Shown here one piece after another: positions 7,196 through 64,000 of a stretch of DNA of 64,000 bases (positions are counted from its first letter, which is position 1; each line of letters opens with the position of its first letter). Below the pieces are notes generated by a model, which saw only the letters and a list, made by a program, of their open reading frames with translations, had not been told where the DNA came from and searched no databases. The translations under genes and the position numbers were made by a program. This DNA comes from Anoplopoma fimbria (Eukaryota > Chordata > Actinopteri > Perciformes > Anoplopomatidae): the NCBI RefSeq assembly GCF_027596085.1, contig NC_072465.1, forward strand, positions 12,948,857 to 13,012,856. The letters are read 5' to 3'.

Positions 7196-7322
7196 AATAC
7201 ATAAAGAAGGAGGGAGAGAAGAGGAGAGAGGAGCTCAGCGTATCCTAGGTAGTCCCCCGGCTGTCTAGGCATATAGCAGCATATCTAGGGGCTGGACCAA
7301 GGCGAACCTGAACCAGCCCTAA

Positions 7323-10300
7323 CTATAAGCGCTATCAAAAAGGAAGGTCTTAAGCCTGCTCTTGAAAGTGGTGAGTGTGTCTGCCCCCGGACTGAAACTG
7401 GAACCTGGTTCCACAGAAGAGGAGCCTGATAACTGAAGGCTCTGGCTCCCATCCTACTTTTATATACTCTAGGAACCACAAGTAACCCTGCATTGATTGA
7501 GCGCAGCTCTCTAGTTGGGTAATATGGAACTATAAGTTCCTTAAGATAAGATGGTGCCTGACCAGTTAGAGCTTTGTAGGTAAGTAAAATAATTTTAAAT
7601 TCTATTCTTGATTTAACAGGGAGCCAGTGCAGAGAAGCTAATACTGGAGTAATATGATCTCTTTTCTTAGTTTTTGTTAGAACACGTGCTGCAGCATTCT
7701 GGATCAACTGTAAAGATCTAAGAGACCTATTAGAGCAGCCTGATAATAAGGAGTTACAGTAATCTAGTCTAGAGGTAACAAATGCATGAACTAGTTTTTC
7801 TGCATCACTTTGAGACAGGATTTGCCTGATTTTCGCAATGTTACGTAAATGAAAAAAGGCTGTCCTTGAGATCTGTTTTATATAAGAGTTAAAAGACAGA
7901 TCCTGGTCAAAGATAACTCCAAGGTTCTTAACGGTAGTGCTGGATGCTAGAGCAATGCCATCTAGAGAAACTATATCGTTAGATAATTGAATTCGAAGGT
8001 GATCTGGGCCTAGTAGGATAACTTCTGTTTTTTCAGAGTTTAACATTAAAAAGTTACAGGTCATCCAGGTTTTTATGTCCGTAAGACATGCTTGAAGTTT
8101 AGAGAACTGGTTAGTTTCGTCTGGCTTAATTGATAGATATAACTGGGTATCATCTGCATAACAATGAAAGTTTACTGTGTGTTTTCTGATAATATTCCCC
8201 AAGGGAAGCATATATAAGGTAAATAAAATAGGTCCAAGAACAGACCCCTGTGGAACTCCGTGACTAACCCTGGTTTTCATCGAGCTTTCATTGTTTACAT
8301 ATACAAACTGAGATCGGTCTGATAAATACGACTTAAACCAGCTAAGTGCGGTTCCTTTAATGCCTATAAGATGCTCCAATCTCTGTAATAGGATTTGGTG
8401 ATCAATGGTATCAAATGCAGCACTAAGGTCTAGCAATACAAGTACAGAGACAAGTCCTTTGTCTGAAGCTATTAGAAGGTCATTGGTAATTTTCACCAGT
8501 GTCGTCTCTGTGCTATGATTCACTCTAAATCCTGACTGAAAATCCTCAAATAAACTATTGTTATGCATAAAGTCACAGAGCTGATTTGCTACTGCTTTCT
8601 CAAGGATCTTAGAGAGGAACGGAAGGTTAGATATAGGTCTATAGTTAGCCAACACCTCTGGATCAAGAGTAGGTTTCTTAAGAAGAGGTTTAATTACAGC
8701 TAGTTTGAAGGCCTGTGGTACATGGCCCGTCAGTAAAGACAGATTGATAATTTCTAATAAGGAGTTGCTAATTAAAGGTAAAACTTCCTTAAGCAGCCTA
8801 GTCGGAATCGGGTCTAAGAGACAGGTGGAAGGTTTAGACTTAGAAATAGTTAAAGTCAATTGTTGAAGGTCGATGGGAGAAAAGCCATCTAAATATATTT
8901 CAGGTTCTACAGCTATGGATCGATCGGTACTGGTTGAGGGCAGTAGATTATACATTTTTTCTCTAATAGTTAGAATCTTATCATTAAAGAAGTTCATGAA
9001 GTCACTACTACTGAGGTTTATAGGAATACACGGCTCAACAGAGCTGTGACTCTCTGTCAGCCTGGCTACAGTGCTGAATAGAACCCTAGGGTTGTTCTTA
9101 TTTTTCTCTATTAATGCTGAGTAATAGGCTGCTCTAGCATTACGGAGTGCCTTCTTATATATTTTAAGACTGTCTCGCCAGACTAACCGCGCTTCATCCA
9201 CATTGGTGGAACGCATGCCATATTCTTTCAAGTTTTCGCGATATTTGCTTTAAATCGCGGGTTTGAGGATTATACCATGCAGCAAACCTCCTTTCTTTTA
9301 TTAGCTTCTTTTTTAGAGGAGCTATAGAGTCTAGTGTCATTCGCAGTGAGCATGCAGCACTATCAACAAGATGGTCAATCTGAGACGGACTAAAGCTAGC
9401 GTAGGAGTCCTCTGTTATATTGAGCAATGGTACTGAATAAAACCCTGAAGAAATCGCTTCTTTAAATTTAGCTACAGCATTATCAGATAGACATCTAGTG
9501 TAGAAACTTTTGCCTAATGGCGTACACTCTGGTAGAACAAATTCAAAGGTTATTAGATAATGGTCCGATAAAAGAGAGTTCTGTTGAGAGACAATTACAT
9601 TTTCTATTTCAATACCATATACCAGAACAAGGTCGAGGGTATGGTTAAAACAGTGAGTCGGTTTATGTACACACTGACAGAAGCCAATAGAATCTAGTAA
9701 TGAACCAAACGCAGTACTAAGGCTATCATTATACACATCCACATGAATATTAAAATCCCCTACAATAATAACTTTATCTGTCTTAAGGACTAAGCTAGAT
9801 AAAAACTCTGAGAATTCAGATAGGAATTCAGAATACGCACCTGGTGCACGATACACTATAACAAATAAAATTGACTTTAATGCTTTCCCGCTCGGGTTTG
9901 AAAGACTAAGAACAAGGCTTTCAAATGAGTTGTAATTTAATTTAGGTTTAGGGTTTATTAATAGGCTTGAGTCAAAGATAGCTGCTACTCCACCTCCTCG
10001 GCCTGTGCCTCGAGGAATATGAGTATTAATATAACTTGGAGGAGTTGATTCATTAAGGCTAACGTACTCTTCATGACACAGCCAGGTTTCAGTAAGACAA
10101 AATAAATCAATATGATTATCTGATATTAAATCATTTACAAGTACACCCTTAGATGACAGAGATCTAATATTTAAGAGTCCACATTTAACTGTCCTGTTTT
10201 GATGCACTGTTGCATCGGTTGCCTTAACTTTTATTAAGTTATTTTGTATAACTCCTCTTCTGTTGACTTTAAATAATTGAAGTGGCCGTGGGGCAGACAC

Positions 10301-10348
10301 AGTCTCTATCGGGTTTTGGGTGGGTAACTGGGTGGGTAACTGCTCCAA
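7323..10348 (-). pseudogene. LINE ORF2 (endonuclease-reverse transcriptase), frameshifted
   Basis: ORF2 of such elements nicks target DNA and copies the element RNA onto it. The N-terminal part (from Met at 10348) is an APE-type endonuclease, with [15 protein letters not shown] and [10 protein letters not shown] motifs. The C-terminal part (up to 9231) is the reverse transcriptase, with [13 protein letters not shown] (motif A), [13 protein letters not shown] (motif B) and [10 protein letters not shown] (catalytic YADD). Relative to copy B there is a 4-base insertion near 9214-9218 (GAACGCATGCCAT against GAACGCCAT) that splits the frame between the two domains. The C run at 7382-7388 is one base shorter than in copy C, so the extreme C-terminus is out of frame. 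The family stop codon sits at 7323-7325. This copy cannot make a full ORF2 protein as read. Confidence 0.85.
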
Positions 10349-21269: not shown

Positions 21270-24200
21270 AAATTCAATTCAATTCAATTCAGTTTATTTT
21301 GTATAGCCCAGAATCACAAATTACAAATTTGCCTCAGAGGGCTTTACAATCTGTGCACATGCGGCATCCTCTGTCCTTCCCTCACATCGGCACAGGAAAA
21401 ACTCCCCTAAAAAACCCCTTTAACAGGGAGAAAAAAGGAAGAAACCTATGGGAGAACGACAGAGGAGGGATCCTTCTCCCAGGATGGACAGAATGCAATA
21501 GATGTCATGTGTACAGAATGAACAGCATAACAGAGATACAACACATTCAATGTATATGACATAAATGATTCATATAATAAGACTACTTATAATAACAGCA
21601 GCAATTATTACAGTTGAATTATAGTTATGAAAATAGGGATAGTAATGTGATTAATAATAATAATCGAAGTAGCAGTGGGTATCAGTCGGCTCACAGCAGG
21701 AGGCACGACTATGGTCCAGGTACCACAACGATTCATGGAAACCTGCAGAACGAGAAAGCAAAAGGGCTTCAGGATTGAAGTAAAGCTAAAATGCTTAATG
21801 GTACAGGTAATAGTAATAGTAATGTGACTAGTAATAATAATGGTGGTAGTAGTCGGTGTCAGCAGGGCCGTAGCAGGATGCACGACCACGGTCCAGGTAC
21901 AGCCACGATTTATAGAAGCCTGCGAAGCGAGAAAGCACAAAGACTCCAGGGTACAAGCAAGGCAATAAGCGTAATAGTACAGGCAATAATAATAGTAAAG
22001 TGACTAATAATGATAGTGGTAGTAGTAGTGGGTGTCAGCAGGGCCTCAGTAGGTGGCACGATGACAGTCCAAATATAACCCCGATTCCTGGGAACCTGCG
22101 AGGCGAGAAAGCACAAGAACTCCGGGGAAGAAGCAAAATCAGTAATGTGCATAAATAGGAGATTAATACATAAAGATGGAGGGAGAGAAGAGGAGAGAGG
22201 AGCTCAGCGTATCCTAGGTAGTCCCCCGGCTGTCTAGGCATATAGCAGCATATCTAGGGGCTGGACCAAGGCGAACCTGAACCAGCCCTAACTATAAGCG
22301 CTATCAAAAAGGAAGGTCTTAAGCCTGCTCTTGAAAGTGGTGAGTGTGTCTGCCACCCGGACTGAAACTGGAACCTGGTTCCACAGAAGAGGAGCCTGAT
22401 AACTGAAGGCTCTGGCTCCCATCCTACTTTTATATATTCTAGGAACCACAAGTAACCCTGCATTGATTGAGCGCAGCTCTCTAGTTGGGTAATATGGAAC
22501 TATAAGTTCCTTAAGATAAGATGGTGCCTGGCCAGTTAGAGCTTTGTAGGTAAGTAAAAGAATTTAAATTCTATTCTTGATTTAACAGGGAGCCAGTGCA
22601 GAGAAGCTAATACTGGAGTAATATGATCTCTTTTCTTAGTTTTTGTTAGAACACGTGCTGCAGCATTCTGGATCAACTGTAAAGATCTAAGAGACCTATT
22701 AGAGCAGCCTGATAATAAGGAGTTACAGTAATCTAGTCTAGAGGTAACAAATGCATGAACTAGTTTTTCTGCATCGCTTTGAGACAGGATTTGCCTGATT
22801 TTCGCAATGTTACGTAAATGAAAAAAGGCTGTCCTTGAGATCTGTTTTATATAAGAATTAAAAGACAGATCCTGGTCAAAGATAACTCCAAGGTTCTTAA
22901 CAGTAGTGCTGGATGCTAGAGCAATGCCATCTGGAGAAACTATATCGTTAGATAATTGAATTCGAAGGTGATCTGGGCCTAGTAGGATAACTTCTGTTTT
23001 TTCAGAGTTTAACATTAAAAAGTTACAGGTCATCCAGGTTTTTATGTCCGTAAGACATGCTTGAAGTTTAGAGAACTGGTTAGTTTCGTCTGGCTTAATT
23101 GATAGATATAACTGGGTATCATCTGCATAACAATGAAAGTTTACTGAGTGTTTTCTGATAATATTCCCCAAGGGAAGCATATATAAAGTAAATAAAATAG
23201 GTCCAAGAACAGACCCCTGTGGAACTCCGTGACTAACCCTGGTTTTCATCGAGCTTTCATTGTTTACATATACAAACTGAGATCGGTCTGATAAATATGA
23301 CTTAAACCAGCTAAATGCGGTTCCTTTAATGCCTATAAGATGCTCCAATCTCTGTAATAGGATTTGGTGATCAATGGTATCAAATGCAGCACTAAGGTCT
23401 AGCAATACAAGTACAGAGACAAGTCCTTTGTCTGAAGCTATTAGAAGGTCATTGGTAATTTTCACCAGTGCCGTCTCTGTGCTATGATTCACTCTAAATC
23501 CTGACTGAAAATCCTCAAATAAACTATTGTTATGCATAAAGTCACAGAGCTGATTTGCTACTGCTTTCTCAAGGATCTTAGAGAGGAACGGAAGGTTAGA
23601 TATAGGTCTATAGTTAGCCAACACCTCTGGATCTAGAGTAGGTTTCTTAAGAAGATGTTTAATTACAGCTAGTTTGAAGGCCTGTGGTACATGGCCCGTT
23701 AGTAAAGACAGATTGATAATTTCTAATAAAGAATTGCTAATTAAAGGTAAAACTTCCTTAAGCAGCCTAGTCGGAATCGGGTCTAAGAGACAGGTGGAAG
23801 GTTTAGACTTAGAAATAGTTAAAGTCAATTGTTGAAGGTCGATGGGAGAAAAGCCATCTAAATATATTTCAGGTTCTACAGCTGTGGATCGATCGGTACT
23901 GGTTGAGGGCAGTAGATTATACATTTTTTCTCTAATAGTTAGAATCTTATCATTAAAGAAGTTCATGAAGTCACTACTACTGAGGTTTATAGGAATACAC
24001 GGCTCAACAGAGCTGTGACTCTCTGTCAGCCTGGCTACAGTGCTGAAGAGAACCCTAGGGTTGTTCTTATTTTTCTCTATTAATGCTGAGTAATAGGCTG
24101 CTCTAGCATTACGGAGTGCCTTCTTATATATTTTAAGACTGTCTCGCCAGACTAACCGCGCTTCATCCACATTGGTGGAACGCCATATCCTTTCAAGTTT

Positions 24201-25930
24201 TCGCGATATTTGCTTTAAATCGCGGGTTTGAGGATTATACCATGGAGCAAACCTCCTTTCTTTTATTAGCTTCTTTTTTAGAGGAGCTATAGAGTCTAGT
24301 GTCATTCGCAGTGAGCATGCAGCACTATCAACAAGATGGTAAATCGGAGACGGACTAAAGCTAGCGTAGGAGTCCTGTGTTATATTGAGCAATGGTACTG
24401 AATAAAACCCTGAAGAAAGCGCTTCTTTAAATTTAGCTACAGCATTATCAGATAGACATCTAGTGTAGAAACTTTTGCCTAATGGCGTACACTCTGGTAG
24501 AAAAAATTCAAAGGTTATTAGATAATGGTCCGATAAAAGAGAGTTCTGTTGAGAGACAATTACATTTTCTATTTCAATACCATATACCAGAACAAGGTCG
24601 AGGGTATGGTTAAAACAGTGAGTCGGTTTATGTACACACTGACAGAAGCCAATAGAATCTAATAATGAACTAAACGCAGTACTAAGGCTATCATTATACA
24701 CATCCACATGAATATTAAAATCCCCTACAATAATAACTTTATCTGTCTTAAGGACTAAGCTAGATAAAAACTCTGAGAATTCAGATAGGAATTCAGAATA
24801 CGCACCTGGTGCACGATACACTATAACAAATAAAATTGACTTTAATGCTTTCCCGCTCGGGTTTGAAAGACTAAGAACAAGGCTTTCAAATGAGTTGTAA
24901 TTTAATTTAGGTTTAGGGTTTATTAATAGGCTTGAGTCAAAGATAGCTGCTACTCCACCTCCTCGGCCTGTGCCTCGAGGAATATGAGTATTAATATAAC
25001 TTGGAGGAGTTGATTCATTAAGGCTAACGTACTCTTCATGACACAGCCAGGTTTCAGTAAGACAAAATAAATCAATATGATTATCTGATATTAAATCATT
25101 TACAAGTACACCCTTAGATGACAGAGATCTAATATTTAAGAGTCCACATTTAACTGTCCTGTTTTGATGCACTGTTGCATTGGTTGCCTTAACTTTTATT
25201 AAGTTATTTTGTATAACTCCTCTTCTGTTGACTTTAAATAATTGAAGTGGCCGTGGGGCAGACACAGTCTCTATTGGGTTTTGGGTGGGTAAATGGGTGG
25301 GTAACTGCTCCAAAGGAAGCGCAGAGAAGTGTGAAAGACTGCGACTCTGCTTCTGCTTCCTGGTCTGAACTCTGGGTCATGGATTAGGTCCACTAATGAA
25401 CTGGGTCAGATTTCTAGAGATGAGATCCGCTCCATCCAAAGTAGGATGAATGCCGTCTCTCCTAATCAGACCAGGTTTTCCCCAGAAAGTATGCCAATTG
25501 TCTACGAAGCCCACATTGTTTGCAAGACACCACCTCGACAGCCAGCGGCGGAATGATGACATGCGGCTATACATCTCATCATTGACCAGATTAGGGAGAG
25601 GGCCAGAGAATACTACGGAGTCCGACATTGTCTTTGCGTACAAACACACCGATTCCACGTTCAATTTAGTGACCTCCGAGCGACGTAATCGGGTGTCATT
25701 ACCGCCGACGTGAATAACAATCGTACTGTATTTACGTTTAGCCTTAGCCAGCAGTTTTAAATGGGATTCTATGTCGCCCGCTCTGGCCCCGGGGATGCAG
25801 TTAACTATGGCCCCTGTCTTCGCTAACTTCACGTTTCTCAGAATGGAGCTGCCGATCACCAGAGTTGGTTTCTCAGCGGGTGTGTCGCTGAGCGGGGAAA
25901 ACCGCATTTCAATCAGAGGAACCCCATTTT
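21270..25930 (-). mobile_element. L2-like LINE, copy B, most complete copy
   Basis: This minus-strand LINE starts with its tail (ATTCAATTCAATTCAATTC on the + strand) at 21270. It carries the same 3' UTR, ORF2 and ORF1 as copy A, with only scattered differences. It keeps most of the ORF1 esterase domain and an unbroken 900-codon stretch of ORF2. Its flanks differ from those of copy A, so the two are separate insertions and not one duplicated block. The 5' edge near 25930 abuts a SINE-like repeat, where the similarity to that repeat's internal part begins abruptly. Confidence 0.88.
22292..25313 (-). pseudogene. LINE ORF2, nearly intact, late frameshift
   Basis: From Met at 25313 the frame is open for 925 codons. 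It has the endonuclease ([32 protein letters not shown]) in about the first 260 residues and the reverse transcriptase in about residues 510-800 ([54 protein letters not shown]). Unlike copy A it has no insertion between the domains. One base is missing from the run near 22561-22567 (AGAATTTAAATTC against AGAATTTTAAATTC in copy C). This shifts the frame about 90 codons before the family stop at 22292-22294. The catalytic motifs look intact, so a truncated but possibly partly active protein cannot be excluded from sequence alone. Confidence 0.87.
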
Positions 25931-26003
25931 GCTCCCAAAGGCTGTGTGAAAATGTTGGTGTGAATGGATTAGTTAGTCCTAAAGGGCAGGTGGCACCTGT
26001 CAT
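25377..26003 (-). CDS. LINE ORF1 with SGNH-esterase-like domain, chimeric N-terminus
   Basis: The 208-codon frame carries the blocks of an SGNH/GDSL hydrolase: VIGSSILRN (block I, candidate catalytic Ser 53), PGARAGDI (block II), HVGGNDTR (block III, Gly and Asn) and RDGIHPT (block V, Asp 183 and His 186). Esterase-like ORF1 proteins of this kind are known in CR1 and L2 LINEs, where they are thought to bind RNA or lipid. The natural ORF1 is longer at its N-terminus. Here the first roughly 25 residues (25931-26003) are read from the neighbouring SINE-like repeat and are not part of the LINE. So this is a 5'-truncated ORF1 joined by chance to upstream sequence. The stop is 64 bases before the ORF2 start codon. 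Confidence 0.75.
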   Translation of the reverse strand: MTGATCPLGLTNPFTPTFSHSLWEQNGVPLIEMRFSPLSDTPAEKPTLVIGSSILRNVKLAKTGAIVNCIPGARAGDIESHLKLLAKAKRKYSTIVIHVGGNDTRLRRSEVTKLNVESVCLYAKTMSDSVVFSGPLPNLVNDEMYSRMSSFRRWLSRWCLANNVGFVDNWHTFWGKPGLIRRDGIHPTLDGADLISRNLTQFISGPNP

Positions 26004-52571: not shown

Positions 52572-53520
52572 CGTCTTCTTAATTATCTTCAGTGTGTGGA
52601 AACCTACAGTAGATTAACTGTAAGACATATTTGAATTGAATGTGTACATTAAGTTATATTAATGATTGTTTATTTCTTTTGTACAATCACATGTTCTGGC
52701 ACTTCTGACTAGTGATTATGATGTCACCTATATCATTTTGTCAGATATAACTTTTATTTACTTCATTTGCGTATGCCAGAAGTTATGGTAGATGTTATGG
52801 ACTTCAAAGTAAACAGATCTCAACCCAACTCAACACCTGGGGGATTTTGGCAAACGTTTCCCTCTCAATGCATTTCACCAGATAAGGCTCTACAGAACTG
52901 TTCCAACAAGTTCCATTTTGTGAAAACACAAACTGCTGACTACATCAGCAGATAACAACTTGTGTATTGTGATATCCAAATAGAATTTGACTCCAAAATC
53001 AAGGAATGGGAGAGAAGCATTTCCTGCATCACCTTTTATGTATTACCTGTAAATGAATTAGATAGTTAAATGATCAACAATTGCAGAATAGATAAAACAG
53101 GGCTGACTCTCTCCATGGCAACATTATACTTTCTGCTTGCATCCCCCAAGCTTGGTGGAAACAGTTTCACTAAAAACACAGATGTTTTTTCACTCATTTA
53201 CTCATCATGTGGTTCTTATATCCCTTGAACACTGACACTCTTCATTCATATACAGATAAAAAGATATCAAGTAATTTTGTTTGTTTTTCACATCTTTTTT
53301 TATATATGAAGTGTTCTAGAACATGAGTGATGCCGAATGATGATGATGATGAGGAGGCATATTTATATATTAGGGATGTACAAAACATTCCTTTGGCTCC
53401 TCTTCTGATATTAATCCTTTAGTCTGCCAATACTGAGTCTGTTATTGGCCATACAGGCAACACATATTATTTGATATGGGAGTATTGGGATCAAACTGTA
53501 GTCAACAACTTCTACACAAC
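52572..53520. other. Anonymous DNA, no gene seen
   Basis: Short frames only. A small (GAT)n run lies near 53336-53356. The last five bases, ACAAC, border the LTR element. Confidence 0.4.
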
Positions 53521-53912
53521 TGTAGCCGACTCTCGACTACCGTAGGTTCTCCCCAACACAGATACGGCTTCAGCGGGTAAGTTTAACAAAGGTATATTTC
53601 TTTCTTTCAAAATACAACACAACATGCGGACCGTCGTGCGCTCCGCTTCGCTGCCCGGCTTCTCGGGCGCACTCGGTCCAACGTTCCCGGAACGCCACCA
53701 CTCTGATGGCTTTACGCTCCCGTCTCAGTCCTCGTTCCGCGTGTCTGACTGTCCTTCTCTCGAACTCCCGTCTGCTACTGCTTAAGTAGATTCGGCATAA
53801 TTAGCACCACATTACAGCTGTGTTGATTGAACTCACCACGGCACTGTTCCCATGAACCACTCCCACACCTCTCTCCCCCTGCTGCTGAGCGCAGACCACG
53901 CCCACTGCCACA
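53521..53912 (-). repeat. 3' LTR of the Gmr1-like element
   Basis: On the minus strand it starts TGTGGCAGTGG and ends GTCGGCTACA, i.e. TG...CA. It is 392 bp and matches 58179-58570 except for two substitutions (at 53595 and 53780). Frames that read into it from RNase H end inside it. Confidence 0.95.
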
Positions 53913-53928
53913 CACCTCCACCGCCCGA
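53913..53928 (-). promoter_or_regulatory. Candidate polypurine tract
   Basis: Directly upstream of the 3' LTR the minus strand reads GGGCGGTGGAGGTG, purine-rich but with two T interruptions. Its place fits a plus-strand primer. A longer purine run (10 G) lies about 50 bases further upstream (near 53962-53975) and could be an alternative. Confidence 0.45.
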
Positions 53929-55527
53929 CTTAGGCCGGGGAGCCGTCCAGCCTAGCCTACTCCCCCCCCCCACCTGTGAGCGGGAAAGGAAGTCTGCCAC
54001 AGCCATCTGCACCCCCGGCCTATGGACCACTTTGAATTTAAAAGGCTGCAACGCCAGATACCACCGAGTGATCCGGGCGTTGGCATCCTTCATGCGGTGG
54101 AGCCACTGTAGAGGGGCATGGTCCGAATAGAGGGTGAATGGGCGTCCCAGGAGGTAGTAACGCAGGGCATCGACCGCCCACCGGATCTCCAGGCCTTCCT
54201 TCTCCACTGTGCTGTAGCGAGACTCCCTCTCGGACAGCTTCCGGCTGATGTAAAGCACTGGGCGGTCGATCCCCTGCACCTCCTGGGACAAAACGGCCCC
54301 CAGCCCCCTATTCGAGGCATCAGTCTGCAGGATAAAAGGGAGAGAGAAGTTAGGTGTGTGGAGAAGAGGTTCCCCACAGAGGGCCTGTTTTACCCTCTCA
54401 AGCGCCAGCTGGCACTGCTCCGTCCACTGGACCGGATCTGAGGCACCCTTTCGAGTCAGGTCAGTCAGGGGGCTGGTTAGGTCGGCGAAGTTGGGGATGA
54501 ACCGCCGGTAATACCCTGCCAGCCCCAAGAACCGCCTCACCTCTTTTTTGGTCTTGGGCCTCGGGCAGGCTGCAATCGCTGCTGTCTTGTCGACCTGGGG
54601 ACGAACCTGCCCTCCACCCAAGTGGTACCCCAGATACCGTACCTCCCTCCGTCCAACCGCACACTTCTTCGGGTTGGCGGTGAGCCCAGCCTGTCTCATA
54701 GACTCAAGCACCGCGGACACCCGCTGCATGTGCTCCGCCCAGCTGTTGCTGTGGATGATCACATCATCCAGGTAGGCGGCAGCATAAGCAGCGTGTGGAC
54801 GCAGTACCCGGTCCATGAGACGTTGGAATGTGGCTGGGGCACCGAACAGCCCGAAAGGAAGTGTGACGAAGTGGTACAATCCGTACGGAGTGGAGAAAGC
54901 CGTCTTTTCCCTGGACTCTGGAGATAAGGGAATCTGCCAGTAGCCCTTGGTCAGATCCAGTGTCGTGAAAAACCGAGCCGTGCCGAGCCGGTCCAGGAGC
55001 TCGTCGACCCGGGGCATTGGATAGGCATCAAACCGTGACTCGTCATTCACCTTGCGGTAGTCCCACAGAACCGTATAGACCCATCCTTCTTGACAACCAG
55101 AACAATGGGGCTACACCAGGCACTATTGGACTCTTCTATTACCCCCATCTCCAGCATAGCTTTCAATTCTTTCTGAACTACCTTTCTTTTGTGTTCAGGC
55201 AACCGATAAGGCCGTGATCGTACTGTCACGCCTGGGCGAGTTTCAACATGGTGTTGTATAAGGTTGGTGCGTCCTGGCAGAGGGGAGAACACATCAGCAA
55301 AGCGCTGCTGCAACGCAGCCACATCTGCTCTCTGGGACTGAGTGAGATGGTCTTCACAACGGAGCGAGGCTGGATTGGTGGAATTTGGCACCTCAGGCCC
55401 CAACTCATCCCTCTCTTTCACGGTAGTCACCAGAGAAACAGGCTCTGCCTCTCTCCATGCTTTGAGGAGGTTGAGGTGGTAAATTTGTGTTGCCCCTCCC
55501 CTGTCAGAACGCACAACCTCATAGTCT
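53913..55527 (-). pseudogene. Gmr1-like reverse transcriptase and RNase H
   Basis: The enzyme copies element RNA into DNA. Its N-terminal part lies in the integrase frame (VVQKELKAMLEMGVIEESNS, then WCSPIVLVVKKDGSIRFC, ending near 55070). The rest is in the frame from 55050: RFFTTLDLTKGYWQIPL (first catalytic Asp), LPFGLFGAPATFQRLMD, YLDDVIIHS (YLDD box) and RRFLGLAGYYRRFIPNF. RNase H follows with ILQTDASNRGLGAVLSQE, STVEKEGLEI and FTLYSDHAPLQWL. One base is missing near 55068, just after the CysGly codons, so the frame breaks between RT blocks. All catalytic residues I looked for are present on either side. RNase H runs to about 53960 with no integrase behind it, which confirms the gene order. 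Confidence 0.9.
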
Positions 55528-55529
55528 AC

Positions 55530-56750
55530 ATCGCCCACTCGCTGTGTGACCACAAAGGGCCCTTGCCACTTAGCGAGCAGTTTGGAGCTGGAAGAGGGAA
55601 GTAATACAAGTACTTTATCTCCCGGTGCAAATTGTCTCAGCCTAGCCCCTCTGTTGTACAGGCGTTGTTGACGCTCCTGGGCCCTGAGCAAATTCTCCCG
55701 TGAACATTGCCCCAGTGTGTGGAGTTTTGCTCTCAGGTCCAGGACGTATTGAATCTCGTTTTTGCTTGGGCTCGGACCCTCCTCCCAGTTTTCCTTAACT
55801 AGGTCCAGAACCCCACGTGGTTTTCTGCCAAACAGCAGCTCAAAGGGAGAAAATCCTGTGGAGGCCTGGGGCACCTCCCGCACTGCAAACAACAGAGGGT
55901 CAAGCCACTTATCCCAATTTCCGACATCATCGTGTATGAACTTACGGATCATGGACTTCAAGATTTTATTCAGGCGCTCAACAAGGCCATCGGTCTGTGG
56001 GTGGTAAACGCTAGTCCGAATTGCCTTGACGCCCAATAAACCGTATAGTTCCCTTAATGTGCGTGACATAAACGAGGTGCCCTGGTCGGTCAGAATCTCT
56101 TTCGGGATTCCAACTCGGGAGATGACCTGAAACAGTGCCTGCGCAACACTCTTTGCAGAGATAGTGCGCAGCGGCACCGCTTCAGGATATCGCGTTGCGT
56201 AGTCCACCAGAACTAACACAAAGCGATATCCTCGAGTGCTCCGGTGAAATGGCCCGATGAGGTCCATGCCAATGCGCTCAAACGGGACCTCAATTAGTGG
56301 CAATGGGCGCAATGGGGCTCTTGGGATGGCCGGTTGGTTTACCAGTTGGCATTCAGGGCAAGAGGCACACCAACGGCGCACCACTCCCCGAATCCCAGGC
56401 CAATAGAATCGGGCGATTATCCGGTCTAGTGTTTTGTCATACCCCATGTGACCAGCCATTGGGTTATAGTGAGCCGCCCGGAAAACCATTTCCCGACGGC
56501 TTTCCGGCACCAACAATTGGGTAATATCTTCACCAGTCTGAGTGTCACGACTCACTCTATACAGTCTATCCCTAACCAATGAAAAGTGTGGGTATGTCGG
56601 TGGTGTGTCAGGGTGTACCATGTGACCATCAATTTGTATCACTTGGTCGAAGGCAAAGCGTAGAGTATTGTCACGAGACTGCTCCAGTGGAAAATCTTCC
56701 ATGGAGTGTATTTCGGGAACCTGCGGGGCCCCTTGTGAGGGCACCACCGG
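55530..56750 (-). CDS. Gmr1-like integrase, located before RT
   Basis: Integrase inserts the DNA copy into the host genome. The frame from 56747 has a HHCC zinc domain (HYNPMAGHMGYDKTLDRI, with ...CASCPECQ downstream). It continues with the catalytic core: GMDLIGPF (first Asp), ILTDQGTSFMS (second Asp) and YHPQTDGLVERLNKILK (Glu). The C-terminal part has FAPGDKVLVLLP and KWQGPFVVTQRVGDVDYEV, the GPY/F module of Ty3/gypsy integrases. The core looks intact. The frame continues without a stop into the N-terminal RT region, so integrase and RT would be one polyprotein. The upstream junction with protease is out of frame (near 56740-56770). Confidence 0.9.
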
Positions 56751-56769
56751 TTCCCGGCAGCATCAGCAG

Positions 56770-57160
56770 CGTCGGACAACCTCGCATCACCACTGAGCAC
56801 AGCACACATCCCACATGTCCCTGCCGGTCGCGATCGCACACCCACACATTGCCCCACTAACGTATGGAACCCAGACCAATCCGTGCCTAAAATCAGTGGG
56901 TGTGCAAGGCGGGAGCTAACCGCAGCCCTAATTCTATGCGTTTTGCCCCTGTGTTTAATTTCAACTGACACAACAGGATATCTGTGAACATCCCCATGCA
57001 CACACCTTATCTCCACCCACTTTGCCTCTACCAACGCCCCGGGCCGAACCAAGTTCTGGTGGACCATGGACTGTGTACAGCCCGAGTCCACCATAGCCTG
57101 GTGTACACCCCCTTGAATCCTTACCGGAACGCTGTATGTCCCCCCCGGACCGGAGGAGGG
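56770..57160 (-). CDS. Gmr1-like aspartic protease region
   Basis: In the minus-strand frame that begins at 57535, PVRIQGGVHQAMVDSGCTQS contains the catalytic DSG triplet (57080-57088). The substrate-flap region and the LILGTDWSGF motif follow (the I/L-L-G-x-D near the C-terminus of retroviral-type proteases). It lies behind the CCHC knuckle in the same frame, as usual in gypsy elements. The frame is closed to the integrase frame by a shift near 56740-56770. Whether that is a mutation or a programmed shift cannot be told from one copy. Confidence 0.8.
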
Positions 57161-57199
57161 TGCTGGCGGGCCGGCAACCCGGATCACCTGGCCGACCTC

Positions 57200-58147
57200 C
57201 ATCAGTGGACATTCTCTGCGGAAGTGACCGGGCTGCCCACACCTCCAACACTCCTGCTCTGACGCCTGAGGGGCCCCCTGTGGGTTGGGAACAGCGCCTG
57301 GAGCCTGGCGATGGGAGGAAACAGAGGGAGGGTTATTGCGAGGTTGAAATGCATGAGCTTGTGGGGGGCGATGGAGGGAGGCTGAGGTGAGGAACTTCCT
57401 GCGAGGAGCAGGAGTCGGTCGGACAGGCGCTGATGTCCACCCCTCTGCTCCCTGTCCCCGGGGTGGACGGCGAGGTGATCCTCCGCGAGGATAATGGCCG
57501 CCCCCAAGTCCCCAGGTCGGTGGCACCGCACCCATTCCGACGTCCCAGTCGGGAGGCCCTCCACAAACTGTTCAATCGTGATCCTCTCCAGCATCTTCTG
57601 CTCACCATCAGACTCCCCTGGCTGTAGCCACCTGTTAGCCACGTCCCTCAGCTTCTGGGCATACACGAAAGGACGGTCGGTGGGTGTCCATTTCGTGCCC
57701 CGGAACCGGCGACGGTGGTCCTCGGGGAGAAACCCGTCCTATGAAGGACGGCTTTTTTATGTCCTGGAAATTTCCCCGCGAGGACGCTGGCAGGCCGAGC
57801 GCCGCAGTTTGGGCCCCCTGACAGCAAGGGGAGCAGGCGCACGGACCACGCCGCCGCCGGCCACCCGCACCCGCCGCCGCCCCCTCGAACATCTCCAGGA
57901 AGGTCTGTGGGTCGTCTTCCGCGGACATTTTGTGGAGCGCGATGTCCGTGAGCGGTGACGGAGGGGGTGGAGCCGCCGCCCCCGACCGGGACAGCAGGCT
58001 CTCCAGGACCCGGGTCTGCATCTCCGCCTGGCTGTGGAGTGCCTCCATCTGCCGCCGGTTCACCTCCGTCTGTTGCTGGTGCATGGCCACGATCTCCCCC
58101 AGCATCTGGGCCAACGCCGCCACCGGCTGTGTCTGCTGCTCCGTCAT
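57200..58147 (-). pseudogene. Gmr1-like gag with SCAN-like stretch, frameshifted
   Basis: Gag forms the capsid. The start is the Met at 58147, shortly after the primer site. The first frame has a Gln-rich predicted coiled coil (QQQTEVNRRQMEALHSQAEM) and then MSAEDDPQTFLEMFEG. At about 57700-57900 the frame wanders (two or more indels around a GC-rich run). The frame from 57666 reads YAQKLRDVANRWLQPG, then MLERITIEQFVEGLPTGTSE, then WVRCHRPGDLGAAIILAEDH. This strongly resembles the second half of the SCAN domain (LRxLCxxWLRPE, E-Q-F/L, LP, WV, P, A-V-x-L-x-E-D). A third frame (from 57535) has a Pro-rich linker and the zinc knuckle CWRCGQPGHFRREC (57209-57250). At least three frame changes are needed to read gag through. 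Confidence 0.82.
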
Positions 58148-58159
58148 CCCCGTGTTGAG

Positions 58160-58177
58160 GTCCCTCTTCAGGCGCCA
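58160..58177 (-). promoter_or_regulatory. tRNA-Lys-type primer binding site
   Basis: On the minus strand, one base after the 5' LTR, the sequence is TGGCGCCTGAAGAGGGAC. It matches the tRNA-Lys primer site of retroviruses (TGGCGCCCGAACAGGGAC) at 16 of 18 positions. The position right behind the 5' LTR supports the call and sets the element's orientation. Confidence 0.8.
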
Positions 58178-58178
58178 G

Positions 58179-58570
58179 TGTAGCCGACTCTCGACTACCG
58201 TAGGTTCTCCCCAACACAGATACGGCTTCAGCGGGTAAGTTTAACAAAGGTATGTTTCTTTCTTTCAAAATACAACACAACATGCGGACCGTCGTGCGCT
58301 CCGCTTCGCTGCCCGGCTTCTCGGGCGCACTCGGTCCAACGTTCCCGGAACGCCACCACTCTGATGGCTTTACGCTCCCGTCTCAGTCCTCGTTCCGCGT
58401 GTCTGACTGTCCTTCTCTCGAACTCCCGTCTGCTACTCCTTAAGTAGATTCGGCATAATTAGCACCACATTACAGCTGTGTTGATTGAACTCACCACGGC
58501 ACTGTTCCCATGAACCACTCCCACACCTCTCTCCCCCTGCTGCTGAGCGCAGACCACGCCCACTGCCACA
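58179..58570 (-). repeat. 5' LTR of the Gmr1-like element
   Basis: This is the 392-bp direct repeat of 53521-53912 with two base differences. It would carry the element's promoter. I cannot fix a transcription start by eye. It is bordered on its right by ATAAC, the near match to the ACAAC at the other end. Confidence 0.95.
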
Positions 58571-58880
58571 ATAACCTTGATAGAAAAAATCATGAGATCT
58601 AAAAAGATTGAATGTAGAACATAAAGAGTTTGGCAAAGACAACAATTTAAGTCCAAGTGACACCAAGAAACATAAACGTGTCTTCAGTAAGAAATGTTAA
58701 CGGTCATGGTTCACACTCTGTACTGAATGCAGGGTCCTGAATAGTTTGTACTACAAGGGAAAACAAGTGGTAAGATTAAATAAAATAATATAGAGAGCCA
58801 TCACTACAAGCCTGCCCTCTGTTCCTTCTGTTCTGTTACTCAATTAAATCCGTCATTCATCATTTCTTTCATCTTTTCAT
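58571..58880. other. Short anonymous stretch
   Basis: No feature was recognised between the LTR and the duplicated segments that follow. Confidence 0.4.
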
Positions 58881-59556: not shown

Positions 59557-59847
59557 AATTCAATTCAATTCAGTTTATTTTGTATAGCCCAGAATCACAA
59601 ATTACAAATTTGCCTCAGAGGGCTTTACAATCTGTGCACATGCGACATCCTCTGTCCTTCCCTCACATCGGCACAGGAAAAACTCCCCTAAAAAAAACCT
59701 TTAACAGGGAGAAAAAAGGAAGAAACCTATGGGAGAACGACAGAGGAGGGATCCTTCTCCCAGGATGGACAGAATGCAATAGATGTCATGTGTACAGAAT
59801 GAACAGCATAACAGAGATACAACACATTCAATGTATATGACATAAAT
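59557..59847 (-). mobile_element. 5'-truncated L2 fragment (3' end only)
   Basis: It contains the L2 tail and the first roughly 290 bp of the 3' UTR seen in copies A-C and then ends. It is inserted directly in a dyad unit: GGTCTAATT at 59552 runs into the tail, and array-like sequence resumes at 59848. Very similar to the large copies, so recent. The open frame read across it on the + strand (59580-59840) recurs in every L2 copy and is antisense UTR. Confidence 0.88.
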
Positions 59848-59946
59848 ACTGAGTCTAACAGGACCATAATCTCATTCCCATGTAAAAACAAAAACAAAAC
59901 TGAAATGACTTTCCTCTCCTTTGTCCTGTCTCCGGAGACTCTTCAT

Positions 59947-60101
59947 TTCAATTCAATTAAATTCAGTTTATTTTGTATAGCCCAGAATCACAAATTACAA
60001 ATTTGCCTCAGAGGGCTTTACAATCTGTACACATGCGACATCCTCTGTCCCGGACCCCTCACATCGGCACAGTAAAAACTCCCCTAAAAAAACCCTTTAA
60101 C
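59947..60101 (-). mobile_element. Second 5'-truncated L2 fragment
   Basis: About 155 bp of the same L2 3' end, slightly more diverged (CTGTCCCGGACCCCTCACATC against CTGTCCTTCCCTCACATC, compared piecewise). It ends at CCCTTTAAC, and array sequence resumes at 60102. Confidence 0.85.
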
Positions 60102-60657
60102 TTCAGGTCTCTCTCTGGTCTTACTCTACCCCTCTATTCTGTTTTGCGGTCTAAGCTGACCAACTATCTGTGCTAAATTCTAATTATCCTGTTCTGCAGT
60201 CTAACAAGACCCCCCATCCTGTGGTCTGATATGACCAACAACTATCCTGTGTAGCGTTCTATCTTGGACCACAAATGTACTGTTCTGTGGTAAAACATTA
60301 CCCCCACCTATCCTTTCCTGCGGTCTGTCGAGACCCCTGCTATCAATTCCGTGATCTGTCGAGATCCCACCAGACTTTACTGTGGTCTATCTAGACCCGC
60401 ACTATCCTGTTCTGCGGTCTATCGAGACCCCCCCCCCATCCTTGTCTGTGGTCAATCTAGACCATACTCTATCCTTTGCTATGGTTTACTTGACCCCTCT
60501 TAACTCTGGCTTAACTTCAATTCATGCAAGCTCATTCTAACAAGTTTTACCCATAACCTTTATCTCATGACTAATCTTGTGTTTCTAATAAGGCGTTATC
60601 TGCAGCAGTAGGTAAGTTATTTTTTTATATATTTATATAAAATAATTCTTACTTTTG

Positions 60658-60805
60658 AGGGATTGTGCCTGTCTGACCTCAGCATCACTGCCCCTCTGTT
60701 ACAGTTACGCTATGGAGTCCAATCGCCAAAGACTTTGCATTATTCATTCCTATGTGTAATAAATTATTGTTACATTTTATTGAAGTCTCTCATGAATGAA
60801 ATTAA
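60658..60805 (+). repeat. Duplicated segment with LTR-like features, copy 1
   Basis: It shares GGATTGTGCCTGTCTGA, CTCAGCATCACTGCCC, GCTATGGAGTCCAATC, CCAAAGACTTTGC and TTTTATTGAAGTCTCTC (separate motifs) with 61119-61270. It is preceded by a short purine run (GAGGGA) and contains an AATAAA-like motif. This is compatible with an LTR of an unidentified element, but the borders are unclear. It is followed directly by the segment 60806-60938. Confidence 0.6.
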
Positions 60806-60938
60806 GCTTAGCGGAGGTTCAGTCAGGAAGACTATCTTTACGCTCCTTGTCATTCATAATCTCAGTCACTCCCCCCCCGTTTACTGTAAATTAACCAACC
60901 AGATTCTGCCACAGTTTCCTTAAGCCAATAACATCTTT
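60806..60938 (+). repeat. Duplicated segment, copy 2
   Basis: It matches 58967-59133 but lacks about 35 bases of it. It begins right after the LTR-like segment 60658-60805. Confidence 0.75.
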
Positions 60939-61118
60939 GCCGTCAAACTTTAAAAATGTTCTCCTCTCTGCTGCTTTCAGTTGTCATTTCAGCATGGTCA
61001 GATGGACCCACCTCCACCCCAGTCACCTCTAGTTGGCATCACAGTACTGCTCATCATTCATCATTGGATGCAACGACTCATTATATCACCACCACCACCA
61101 GTGTCTTGACTTTAGGGG

Positions 61119-61270
61119 GGATTGTGCCTGTCTGAACTCAGCATCACTGCCCATCTGTAAGATGGTTTCGCTATGGAGTCCAATCTCCAAAGACTTTGCT
61201 TTGTTCATTTTTTTATGTGTAATTAATTATTGTTAAATTTTATTGAAGTCTCTCCTGATTGAAATTATTA
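61119..61270 (+). repeat. Duplicated segment with LTR-like features, copy 2
   Basis: This is the second copy of 60658-60805, preceded by TTTAGGGGGGA, which resembles a polypurine tract. If both are LTRs, the roughly 310 bp between them would be a very short internal region, so a partly deleted element or tandem duplication is more likely. Confidence 0.6.
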
Positions 61271-61779
61271 TCTTGTAGCATGAGCATGAGTTACTGAGTT
61301 TACGCCTTGGAAGTACATGGTTGGAATGGACCCATAGATGGACATCTCAGGTTTAATTCACTCAGTTTGGAGCCCTGAATTCTGGATTCTAACATATCTA
61401 ACAAGAGCTTGGGCTTGTTTTCTGGTTTAAGCTCCAATAACCATCTTTGGCTGTTCGATCAAAGGCAAAATTGTGGTTGTGTTTTCAAAATAAGAAAACA
61501 TGGTCTTTTACAAAGGAAGATATCAATGGTCTGAGCCCAAACAAGCTGAATGCTGTGATGGAACTCTTAGAGCTAGTTCCTTCGAGACAGAAGAAGTTTC
61601 GGCAGACCCAGATGTCTTAAGCAGTAACATTTATTGTTTCTCGATCGAGGAGAACAGGGAAACGCCACGTGTGAATCACAGCATACTGCTACCCAATTCT
61701 GAAGATGGTGTCGTTGAGCACAGTATTTAACCTTCCCCAGGCCAGCTAAGTTCCACTATATCCAAATAGGGTTAGTTCA
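61271..61779. other. Anonymous DNA, no gene seen
   Basis: A 76-codon + strand frame at 61500-61730 has no recognisable motif, and I do not call it a gene. Confidence 0.4.
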
Positions 61780-62819
61780 TCAATTCAATTCAATTCAATT
61801 CAGTTTATTTTGTATAGCCCAGAATCACAAATTACAAATTTGCCTCAGAGGGCTTTACAATCTGTGCACATGCGACATCCTCTGTCCTTCCCTCACATCG
61901 GCACAGGAAAAACTCCCCTAAAAAACCCCTTTAACAGGGAGAAAAAAGGAAGAAACCTATGGGAGAACGACAGAGGAGGGATCCTTCTCCCAGGATGGAC
62001 AGAATGCAATAGATGTCATGTGTACAGAATGAGCAGCATAACAGTTCTTAGATACAACACATTCAATGTATATGACATAAATTATTCATATAATAAGACT
62101 ACTTATAATAACAGCAGCAATTATTACAGTAGAATTATAGCCATGAAAATAGGGATAGTAATGTGACTAATAATAATAATCGTAGTAGCAGTGGGTGTCA
62201 GTCGGCTCACAGCAGGAGGCACGACTACGGTCCAGGTACCACAACGATTCATGGAAACCTGCAGAACGAGAAAGCAAAAGGGCTTCAGGGTGGAAGTAAA
62301 GCTAAAATGCTTAATGGTACAGGAAATAGTAATAGTAATGTGACTAGTAATAATAATAATGGTGGTAGCAGTCGGTGTCAGCAGGGCCGTAGCAGGATGC
62401 ACATCCACGGTCCAGGTACAGCCACGATTTATAGAAGCCTGCGAAGCGAGAAAGCACAAAGACTCCAGGGTACAAGCAAGGCAATAAGCGTAATAGTACA
62501 GGCAATAATAATAGTAATGTGACTAATAATGATAGTGGTAGTAGTAGTGGGTGTCAGCAGGGCCTCAGTAGGTGGCACGATGACAGTCCAAATATAACCC
62601 CGATTCCTGGGAACCTGCGAGGCGAGAAAGCACAAGAACTCCGGGGAAGAAGCAAAATCAGTAATGTGCATAAATAGGAGATTAATACATAAAGAAGGAG
62701 GGAGAGAAGAGGAGAGAGGAGCTCAGCGTATCCTAGGTAGTCCCCGACTGTCTAGGCATATAGCAGCATATTTAGGGGCTGGACCAAGGCGAACCTGAAC
62801 CAGCCCTAACTATAAGCGC

Positions 62820-63146
62820 TGTAAGAGCCATATTAGACTTCATAAGATGTGTTCAGTTATATAGTAACGAAAAATGTTGAAATGCTCCTTTAGTTACGCT
62901 ACTGACGACGTCATAGCCAATAGCCCTCAGTTGAGGTTAATCAGTCTGCGGAGCAAGACAGTTTTTTGACCGTAGTGCCAAGTTGAGCACAGAATGAATC
63001 TTGTAACTTTGTTTTTTGTCGAGTAAACTTTTAAAATGGAGTTACTGCCTCTGAAGAATCATTTCGCGTCAAGCTCATTGCAAATACGCAGACTGTTACA
63101 GTAGTGGTAATGTGGATCACCAGACAGAGAGAAGAATGCCGCTACA
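62820..63146. mobile_element. Solo LTR inserted in L2 copy C
   Basis: The insert begins TGTAAGAGCC and ends GCCGCTACA (TG...CA, with TGTA/TACA ends). It is flanked by AGCGC on both sides (62815-62819 and 63147-63151). Copies A and B have the uninterrupted target (ATAAGCGCTATC) at this place, so the insertion and its 5-bp target duplication are directly visible. There is no internal retrotransposon sequence. A GAGTAAAC motif near 63020 could be a variant polyadenylation signal for + orientation. It is unlike the LTRs at 53521 and 47160. Its parent family (gypsy, BEL or ERV) is not known. Confidence 0.85.
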
Positions 63147-63151
63147 AGCGC

Positions 63152-64000
63152 TATCAAAAAGGAAGGTCTTAAGCCTGCTCTTGAAAGTGGTGAGTGTGTC
63201 TGCCCCCCGGACTGAAACTGGAACCTGGTTCCACAGAAGAGGAGCCTGATAACTGAAGGCTCTGGCTCCCATCCTACTTTTATATACTCTAGGAACCACA
63301 AGTAACCCTGCATTGATTGAGCGCAGCTCTCTAGTTGGGTAATATGGAACTATAAGTTCCTTAAGATAAGACGGTGCCTGACCAGTTAGAGCTTTGTAGG
63401 TAAGTAAAAGAATTTTAAATTCTATTCTTGATTTAACAGGGAGCCAGTGCAGAGAAGCTAATACTGGAGTAATATGATCTCTTTTCTTAGTTTTTGTTAG
63501 AACACGTGCTGCAGCATTCTGGATCAACTGTAAAGATCTAAGAGACCTATTAGAGCAGCCTGATAATAAGGAGTTACAGTAATCTAGTCTAGAGGTTTTT
63601 TCTGCATCACTTTGAGACAGGATTTGCCTGATTTTCGCAATGTTACGTAAATGAAAAAAGGCTGTCCTTGAGATCTGTTTTATATAAGAGTTAAACGACA
63701 GATCCTGGTCAAAGATAACTCCAAGGTTCTTAACGGTAGTGCTGGATGCTAGAGCAATGCCATCTAGAGAAACTATATCGTTAGATAATTGAATTCGAAG
63801 GTGATCTGGACCTAGTAGGATAACTTCTGTTTTTTCAGAGTTTAACATTAAAAAGTTACAGGTCATCCAGGTTTTTATGTCCGTAAGTCATGCTTGAAGT
63901 CTAGAGAACTGGTTAGTTTCGTCTGGCTTAATTGATAGATACAACTGGGTATCATCTGCATAACAATGAAAGTTTACTGAGTGTTTTCTGATAATATTCC
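63152..64000 (-). pseudogene. LINE ORF2 fragment of copy C
   Basis: This is the C-terminal region of the reverse transcriptase, matching copies A and B ([54 protein letters not shown]). A Cys codon of the other copies is TGA here (63888-63890). An 18-bp in-frame deletion near 63596 removes six residues before TSRLDY. Its C-terminal end ([19 protein letters not shown]) is in frame, unlike copy A, but is then broken by the solo LTR. Confidence 0.85.

What the first reader, a model, noticed from the sequence alone, without database searches (positions are those of the whole stretch)
53521..58570. Ty3/gypsy-type retrotransposon with Copia-like gene order (Gmr1 group)
Seen: integrase (zinc domain, GMDLIGPF, LTDQGTSF, Glu in LVERLNK, GPY/F module) lies upstream of the reverse transcriptase (YLDD) and RNase H, within one continuous frame from integrase into RT. 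Known: Ty3/gypsy elements normally have integrase last; the exception is the Gmr1 group first described in cod. Inferred: this is a nearly complete fish member of that rare group.
Basis: partly seen in the sequence, partly recalled or inferred. Interest (0 to 1): 0.8.

Follow-up and report, generated by a model that had tools for sequence, protein, structure and literature searches.

The report
Fish jumping gene with swapped order
This is a recently inserted, damaged copy of a fish retrotransposon whose integrase lies before its reverse transcriptase, a gene order already known as the Gmr1 group and shared by dozens of other copies in the same genome.

Summary
On the minus strand, 53521-58570 is one LTR retrotransposon: two 392-bp LTRs with 2 differences, a tRNA-Lys-type primer site, then Gag (SCAN domain, zinc knuckle), protease, integrase, RT, RNase H. 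Integrase and RT both match yeast Ty3 best among solved proteins, in swapped order.

The order is not a local rearrangement. Of 50 merged genome places matching this RT at 75% identity or more (window included), 43 pair with an integrase, all integrase-first; 7 are unpaired. At 50-74%, 20 of 45 pair, all integrase-first. Eleven checked places of other gypsy-type elements (four of one family) have the usual order. Integrase-first rows form one group in the RT tree (99/99) and the integrase tree (97/95).

So "Ty3/gypsy, Gmr1 group" is well supported, but the group is in print since 2001-2002 and common in fish and frogs. This copy is broken: the integrase frame enters RT and stops before YLDD; gag and protease are frame-shifted too. 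No named Gmr1 sequence could be put in the trees. New member of a known kind; low-to-moderate interest.

The parts
58179..58570 (-). 5' LTR, 392 bp (TGT...ACA)
   Evidence: 2 differences in 392 to the other LTR; 38 further LTR-like places among the 40 matches scored, of 259 candidates (lower bound)
58160..58177 (-). primer binding site, 17 of 18 bases complementary to the 3' end of tRNA-Lys(TTT) with its CCA
   Evidence: sequence next to the LTR; 4 of 4 genome places matching my tRNA-end pattern are tRNA-Lys TTT genes
57635..58147 (-). Gag N-terminal part (no Pfam family)
57472..57726 (-). Gag capsid part, SCAN domain
   Evidence: PF02023, E 4e-10 on ORF 57202-57666; profile 1-84 at this place; best solved relative: zinc finger protein 24, E 2.8e-6
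57209..57250 (-). zinc knuckle CCHC
56876..57130 (-). aspartic protease (DSG), weak Pfam match
   Evidence: (PF13975 E 2.8e-5 and PF13650 E 3.7e-4, both below their curated cut-offs)
55461..56510 (-). integrase: H2C2 zinc domain, DDE core with D-35-E, p58/GPF C-terminus
55065..55313 (-). N-terminal part of reverse transcriptase, in the integrase frame
   Evidence: residues 478-561 align to Ty3 559-649
54619..55008 (-). reverse transcriptase core with YLDD, in a different frame
54040..54426 (-). RNase H
   Evidence: PF17917, PF17919
53913..53926 (-). putative polypurine tract next to the 3' LTR (11 of 14 purines)
   Evidence: read from sequence; inferred
53521..53912 (-). 3' LTR, 392 bp
53516..53520 (.). 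putative target site duplication, ACAAC (partner at 58571-58575 is ATAAC, 4 of 5 match)

Best explanation
It is a recently inserted copy, no longer able to code for its proteins, of a teleost Ty3/gypsy retrotransposon of the Gmr1 type, with order Gag(SCAN)-PR-INT-RT-RH. Shown: LTRs, primer site, domain order, recurrence of the order, and both enzymes falling in the same integrase-first group. Inferred from general knowledge of LTR elements: the RNA is primed by tRNA-Lys, copied by RT/RNase H inside Gag particles, and integrated by the integrase through the LTR ends, leaving a short (here 5-bp) duplication. The enzymes are cut from one Gag-Pol polyprotein, so integrase ahead of RT changes where the protease must cut but not the cycle. 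The likeliest history is one switch of order in the ancestor of the group.
For: LTR pair, duplication, primer site. Domains; in Ty3 (7q5b_A) RT matches within 559-1009 and integrase at 1088-1443, the reverse of the window. Order: merged RT places, at 75% or more 43 of 50 paired, all INT-first, on 23 contigs (window included); 50-74%, 20 of 45 paired, all INT-first; under 50%, of 6, 3 INT-first, 1 RT-first, 1 on opposite strands, 1 unpaired (unmerged matches: 49 of 56, 20 of 46, same 6). Trees: RT 17 INT-first against 9 RT-first rows, 99/99; INT 21 against 9, 97/95; without rows k61, P0006, P0104 and Ty3, 100/99 and 97/94. SCAN upstream of 38 of 70 INT-first and 0 of 11 RT-first places. One-polyprotein layout: in 15 of the 30 close copies examined (L009-L038) integrase and RT are in one frame with no stop between; of the 120 database proteins listed, 11 carry SCAN and/or protease, then INT, then RT.
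Against: No sequence labelled Gmr1 was in the trees. The duplication has one mismatch. Ten frame differences against at least half of the sister copies sit oddly with only 2 LTR differences. Protease is below Pfam's cut-off. RT-first rows were few (8 from this genome plus Ty3), and I chose the twelve extra places by score spread, not at random. The nearest RT-first set differs, weakly supported, between the two trees.
Confidence: 0.93

Rival explanations
1. Local rearrangement: an ordinary RT-INT element was shuffled by deletion, inversion or nesting so that integrase only appears upstream here.
For: The genome is rich in gypsy-type elements, some lying next to each other.
Against: The same order recurs at 43 of 43 paired close places on 23 contigs and at 50-62% identity (L049, L050); in 15 of 30 close copies one open frame runs from INT into RT.
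Confidence: 0.01
2. Recombinant with Ty1/copia: integrase or RT came from a copia element, which explains the copia-like order.
For: The order is copia-like.
Against: Both parts hit gypsy-type Pfam models (RVT_1, RT_RNaseH, Integrase_H2C2, p58_C; no RVT_2 at E 0.01) and Ty3 best among solved proteins; both trees give one group. No copia sequences were in the trees.
Confidence: 0.02
3. It belongs to an integrase-first lineage separate from the named Gmr1 clade; the order arose more than once, or the group is wider than Gmr1.
For: Two integrase-first sets separate in the RT tree (100/100 for g47/g48/g52/g55/g60/g62; 98/97 for the rest), and no Gmr1 reference was available.
Against: Both sets together are one side of a branch in both trees, and SCAN-type Gag occurs in both.
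Confidence: 0.04

Closest known systems
Gmr1 group of Ty3/gypsy (Butler et al. 2001, cod; Goodwin and Poulter 2002; both seen only as entries in the reference list of PMC8220671)
   Same: Integrase upstream of RT in a gypsy-type pol (stated in PMC8220671, passages); fish host; SCAN-type Gag as in over 50% of frog Gmr elements (PMC4131045, passages)
   Different: Own LTRs and sequence; this copy is frame-broken; no direct sequence comparison with cod Gmr1 was possible
Gmr1-Gmr4 of Tetraodontiformes (PMC11117352, passages)
   Same: Fish; Gag and Pol tabulated as one protein; young insertions; no env
   Different: Consensus 6.1-6.5 kb with LTRs 337-518 bp; here 5.05 kb with LTRs 392 bp
Ty3 of yeast (7q5b_A, 4ol8_A)
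   Same: Best solved match for RT (both chains) and integrase (7q5b_A)
   Different: Ty3 has RT before integrase
Ty1/copia elements
   Same: Integrase before RT (recalled; the likeness of Gmr1 is stated in PMC2774666, passages)
   Different: The window's enzymes are gypsy-type by Pfam

Membership tests
Gmr1 group | Integrase between protease and RT | tested here: met
   recurs at 43 of 43 paired close places, 7 more unpaired
Gmr1 group | RT and integrase both of Ty3/gypsy type | tested here: met
Gmr1 group | RT and integrase trees both place it with other integrase-first elements | tested here: met
   (99/99 and 97/95)
Gmr1 group | SCAN-type Gag (reported for Gmr1-like elements) | tested here: met
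Gmr1 group | Clusters with the cod Gmr1 sequence itself | not testable with these tools
   no sequence so named was among the 120 rows listed, and the papers read give no letters
Ty1/copia | Copia-type RT (RVT_2) | tested here: not met
   one search lists RVT_1, no RVT_2 up to E 0.01
Intact, autonomous element | Unbroken Gag-Pol frame | tested here: not met

The most novel reading that the evidence does not exclude
The integrase-first order and the SCAN-type Gag are one inherited package: they were joined once, before two deep integrase-first lineages that still coexist in this fish genome split, and no RT-first gypsy lineage carries SCAN.
Probability: 0.4. Interest if true: 0.35.

Novelty: new member of a known kind. 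Interest (0 to 1): 0.22.

Why it matters
It confirms from raw sequence that a group of gypsy elements carries its integrase in the copia position, and it gives a fish genome where two such lineages and several ordinary ones can be compared side by side. SCAN domains of vertebrate transcription factors are held to derive from this kind of Gag (PMC3424704; homology and hypothesis in PMC4592553; passages seen), so young SCAN-bearing elements are useful for that history.

Tried and rejected
Local rearrangement: rejected, the order recurs. Copia recombinant: not supported, though no copia rows were in the trees. Spread of a defective subfamily in trans, to explain many frame breaks beside near-identical LTRs: three copies from among those with the most similar LTRs (L073-L075) were compared at the ten places where the window differs in frame from at least half of the other copies. 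Of 21 comparisons that could be made, 17 differ from the window and 4 share its frame (L073 3 of 7, L074 0 of 7, L075 1 of 7). The idea is thus mostly not borne out, though partly shared breaks exist; decay after insertion, error at copying, and assembly error remain open. Two places, L001/L068 and L051/L063, gave integrase but no RT in the stretches read and count as order unknown. Of the 95 integrase places of unknown order, 30 have SCAN upstream and 65 do not. Trees with named Gmr1, barthez, Osvaldo, sushi or copia rows could not be built. The Troyka paper (PMC12440569, passages) gave nothing on this order.

Full report
What is there. The region 53521-58570 is one LTR retrotransposon on the minus strand. 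Its two LTRs are 392 bp (53521-53912 and 58179-58570) and differ at 2 places. On the coding strand they begin TGT and end ACA. The flanking five bases are ACAAC and ATAAC, a putative target site duplication with one mismatch. One base past the 5' LTR lies an 18-base stretch that pairs with the 3' end of tRNA-Lys(TTT) at 17 of 18 bases; four genome places matched the tRNA-end pattern that I wrote, and all four are tRNA-Lys(TTT) genes. A purine-rich stretch (11 of 14) precedes the 3' LTR.

Coding anatomy. In transcription order there are a Gag N-terminal part, a SCAN domain, a CCHC knuckle, an aspartic protease (weak match, below Pfam's cut-off), integrase, RT and RNase H. The integrase motif residues are present: zinc H-H-C-C, D, D-35-E. 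Against solved structures the RT frame matches Ty3 best (E 2.9e-75), and so does the integrase frame (E 3.4e-40). In the Ty3 chain the RT stretches lie at 559-649 and 659-1009 and integrase at 1088-1443, so the swap is direct.

The frame. The integrase frame (55047-56747) enters RT and stops before the catalytic motif; the rest of RT with RNase H is in another frame, the protease in a third, and Gag switches frame as well. Against 35 other copies (not each covering every place), the window differs in frame from at least half of those covering it at ten places: two in RT/RNase H (27 of 28 and 32 of 33 copies differ), two around CCHC/protease (25 of 27, 15 of 29), one in the SCAN part (17 of 26) and five in the Gag N part (18 of 26, 23 of 28, 26 of 26, 25 of 27, 13 of 24), where low-complexity sequence may add alignment noise (first run with 32 copies). 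In 15 of the 30 copies L009-L038, integrase and RT are in one frame with no stop between; in 13, the window among them, the frame differs; 1 has a stop between and 1 lacks RT. With only 2 LTR differences in 392, so many breaks are unexpected and unexplained.

Is the order local? No. The tables, with the zinc-domain places, were paired by position. Of 108 RT matches, 56 are at 75% identity or more: 49 pair with an integrase, all integrase-first, and 7 are unpaired. Forty-six are at 50-74%: 20 pair, all integrase-first, and 26 are unpaired. Six are below 50%: 3 integrase-first, 1 RT-first, 1 on opposite strands, 1 unpaired. Some matches are pieces of one element; merging pieces gives 101 places, with 43 of 50 and 20 of 45 paired in the first two bands, again all integrase-first, and the same six below 50%. 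The window itself is one of these places. Seen from the 82 integrase matches, one paired as RT-first; it lies 4 kb from an RT that has a nearer integrase of its own. score only the best candidates, so counts are lower bounds.

Control with usual order. L005-L008 (one family) and L053, L054, L056, L057, L058, L059 and L061 have RT before integrase: 11 places. Of the 12 extra places that I chose by score spread, 7 were RT-first, 4 integrase-first once extended (L064-L067) and 1 undetermined. The stretches were cut with the usual order in mind, and only those without RT were extended downstream.

Trees. RT and integrase pieces were aligned separately. Integrase-first rows form one side of a branch in both: RT 17 against 9, 99/99; integrase 21 against 9, 97/95. 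The program warned of long branches (Ty3, k61, k08). Without Ty3, k61 and the rows P0006 and P0104, support is 100/99 and 97/94. The nearest RT-first set differs between the trees (k08/k57 in RT, 88/92; k53-k59 in integrase, 81/72), neither strongly, so the sister group is open. In the RT tree the integrase-first rows split into two sets, one with the window and proteins from a cichlid, carp, sturgeon, trout and Xenopus (98/97), the other (g47, g48, g52, g55, g60, g62) with rows of this genome only (100/100). In the integrase tree the second set is again found (100/99), but the place of g50 is open. I did not search other species for the second set.

Gag. SCAN-profile matches number 131 in the genome (150 of 192 candidates scored). 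A SCAN match lies within 2.5 kb upstream of 38 of 70 integrase-first places and 0 of 11 RT-first places. Since Gag may lie further off in RT-first elements, the distance to the nearest SCAN match on the contig was also taken: over 30 kb at 7 of the 11, and no match on the contig at 4. Of 95 places of unknown order, 30 have SCAN. Sixty-three of 131 SCAN matches have no scored integrase within 2.5 kb downstream; 7 of these have a scored RT within 5 kb. The rest may be decayed or unscored copies.

Other species. Of the 120 database relatives listed (of 1,960 that passed the threshold), 56 hold both integrase and RT, all integrase-first, and 64 integrase alone. Eleven carry SCAN and/or protease before both; 15 have SCAN before integrase. 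The rows that bear names are mostly teleosts, with a sturgeon, coelacanth, frogs and a turtle; many rows bear none. They were found by similarity to this element, so they are not an independent test of order.

What is known. The cod element and the group are dated 2001 and 2002 (reference entries seen in PMC8220671; the papers themselves were not read). PMC8220671 (passages) states that Gmr1 integrase usually lies upstream of RT and reports an annelid member; PMC8556966 (passages) lists Gmr1 among clades present in several phyla. PMC11117352 (passages) tabulates 47 Gmr copies from tetraodontiform genomes with young insertions. PMC4131045 (passages) reports about 200 Gmr1-like copies in a frog and SCAN in over half of Gmr elements and in no other elements there. 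PMC3424704 (passages) says that vertebrate SCAN domains derive from Gmr1-like Gag; PMC4592553 (passages) gives it as homology and hypothesis. The finding is therefore a good but ordinary member of a known kind. The literature searches were (listings only, apart from the papers named).

Noticed in passing
window 22536-26003 (-): Non-LTR retrotransposon: an ORF with endonuclease and RT (925 aa) preceded by a separate ORF with a GDSL-lipase-like domain.
   Followed up: partly
window 7285-10348 (-) and 63117-63866 (-): Further copies, by likeness of the translations, of the same non-LTR element: the first split into two frames, the last a fragment without a Pfam match.
   Followed up: partly
window 59557-62656: Cluster of direct repeats: a 258-bp unit twice at 99% with 2.2 kb spacing, related 111-bp units, and a 153-bp unit three times at 72-76%.
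   Followed up: no
LTRs of the window against the genome: Most of the 40 scored LTR matches are 94-96% identical to the window LTR, while the internal part of 35 other copies is 98-99% identical, as if LTR subfamilies were exchanged between copies.
   Followed up: no
L047, L048, L052/L064, L055/L065, L060/L066, L062/L067: A second, distant integrase-first lineage with SCAN-type Gag in the same genome.
   Followed up: partly
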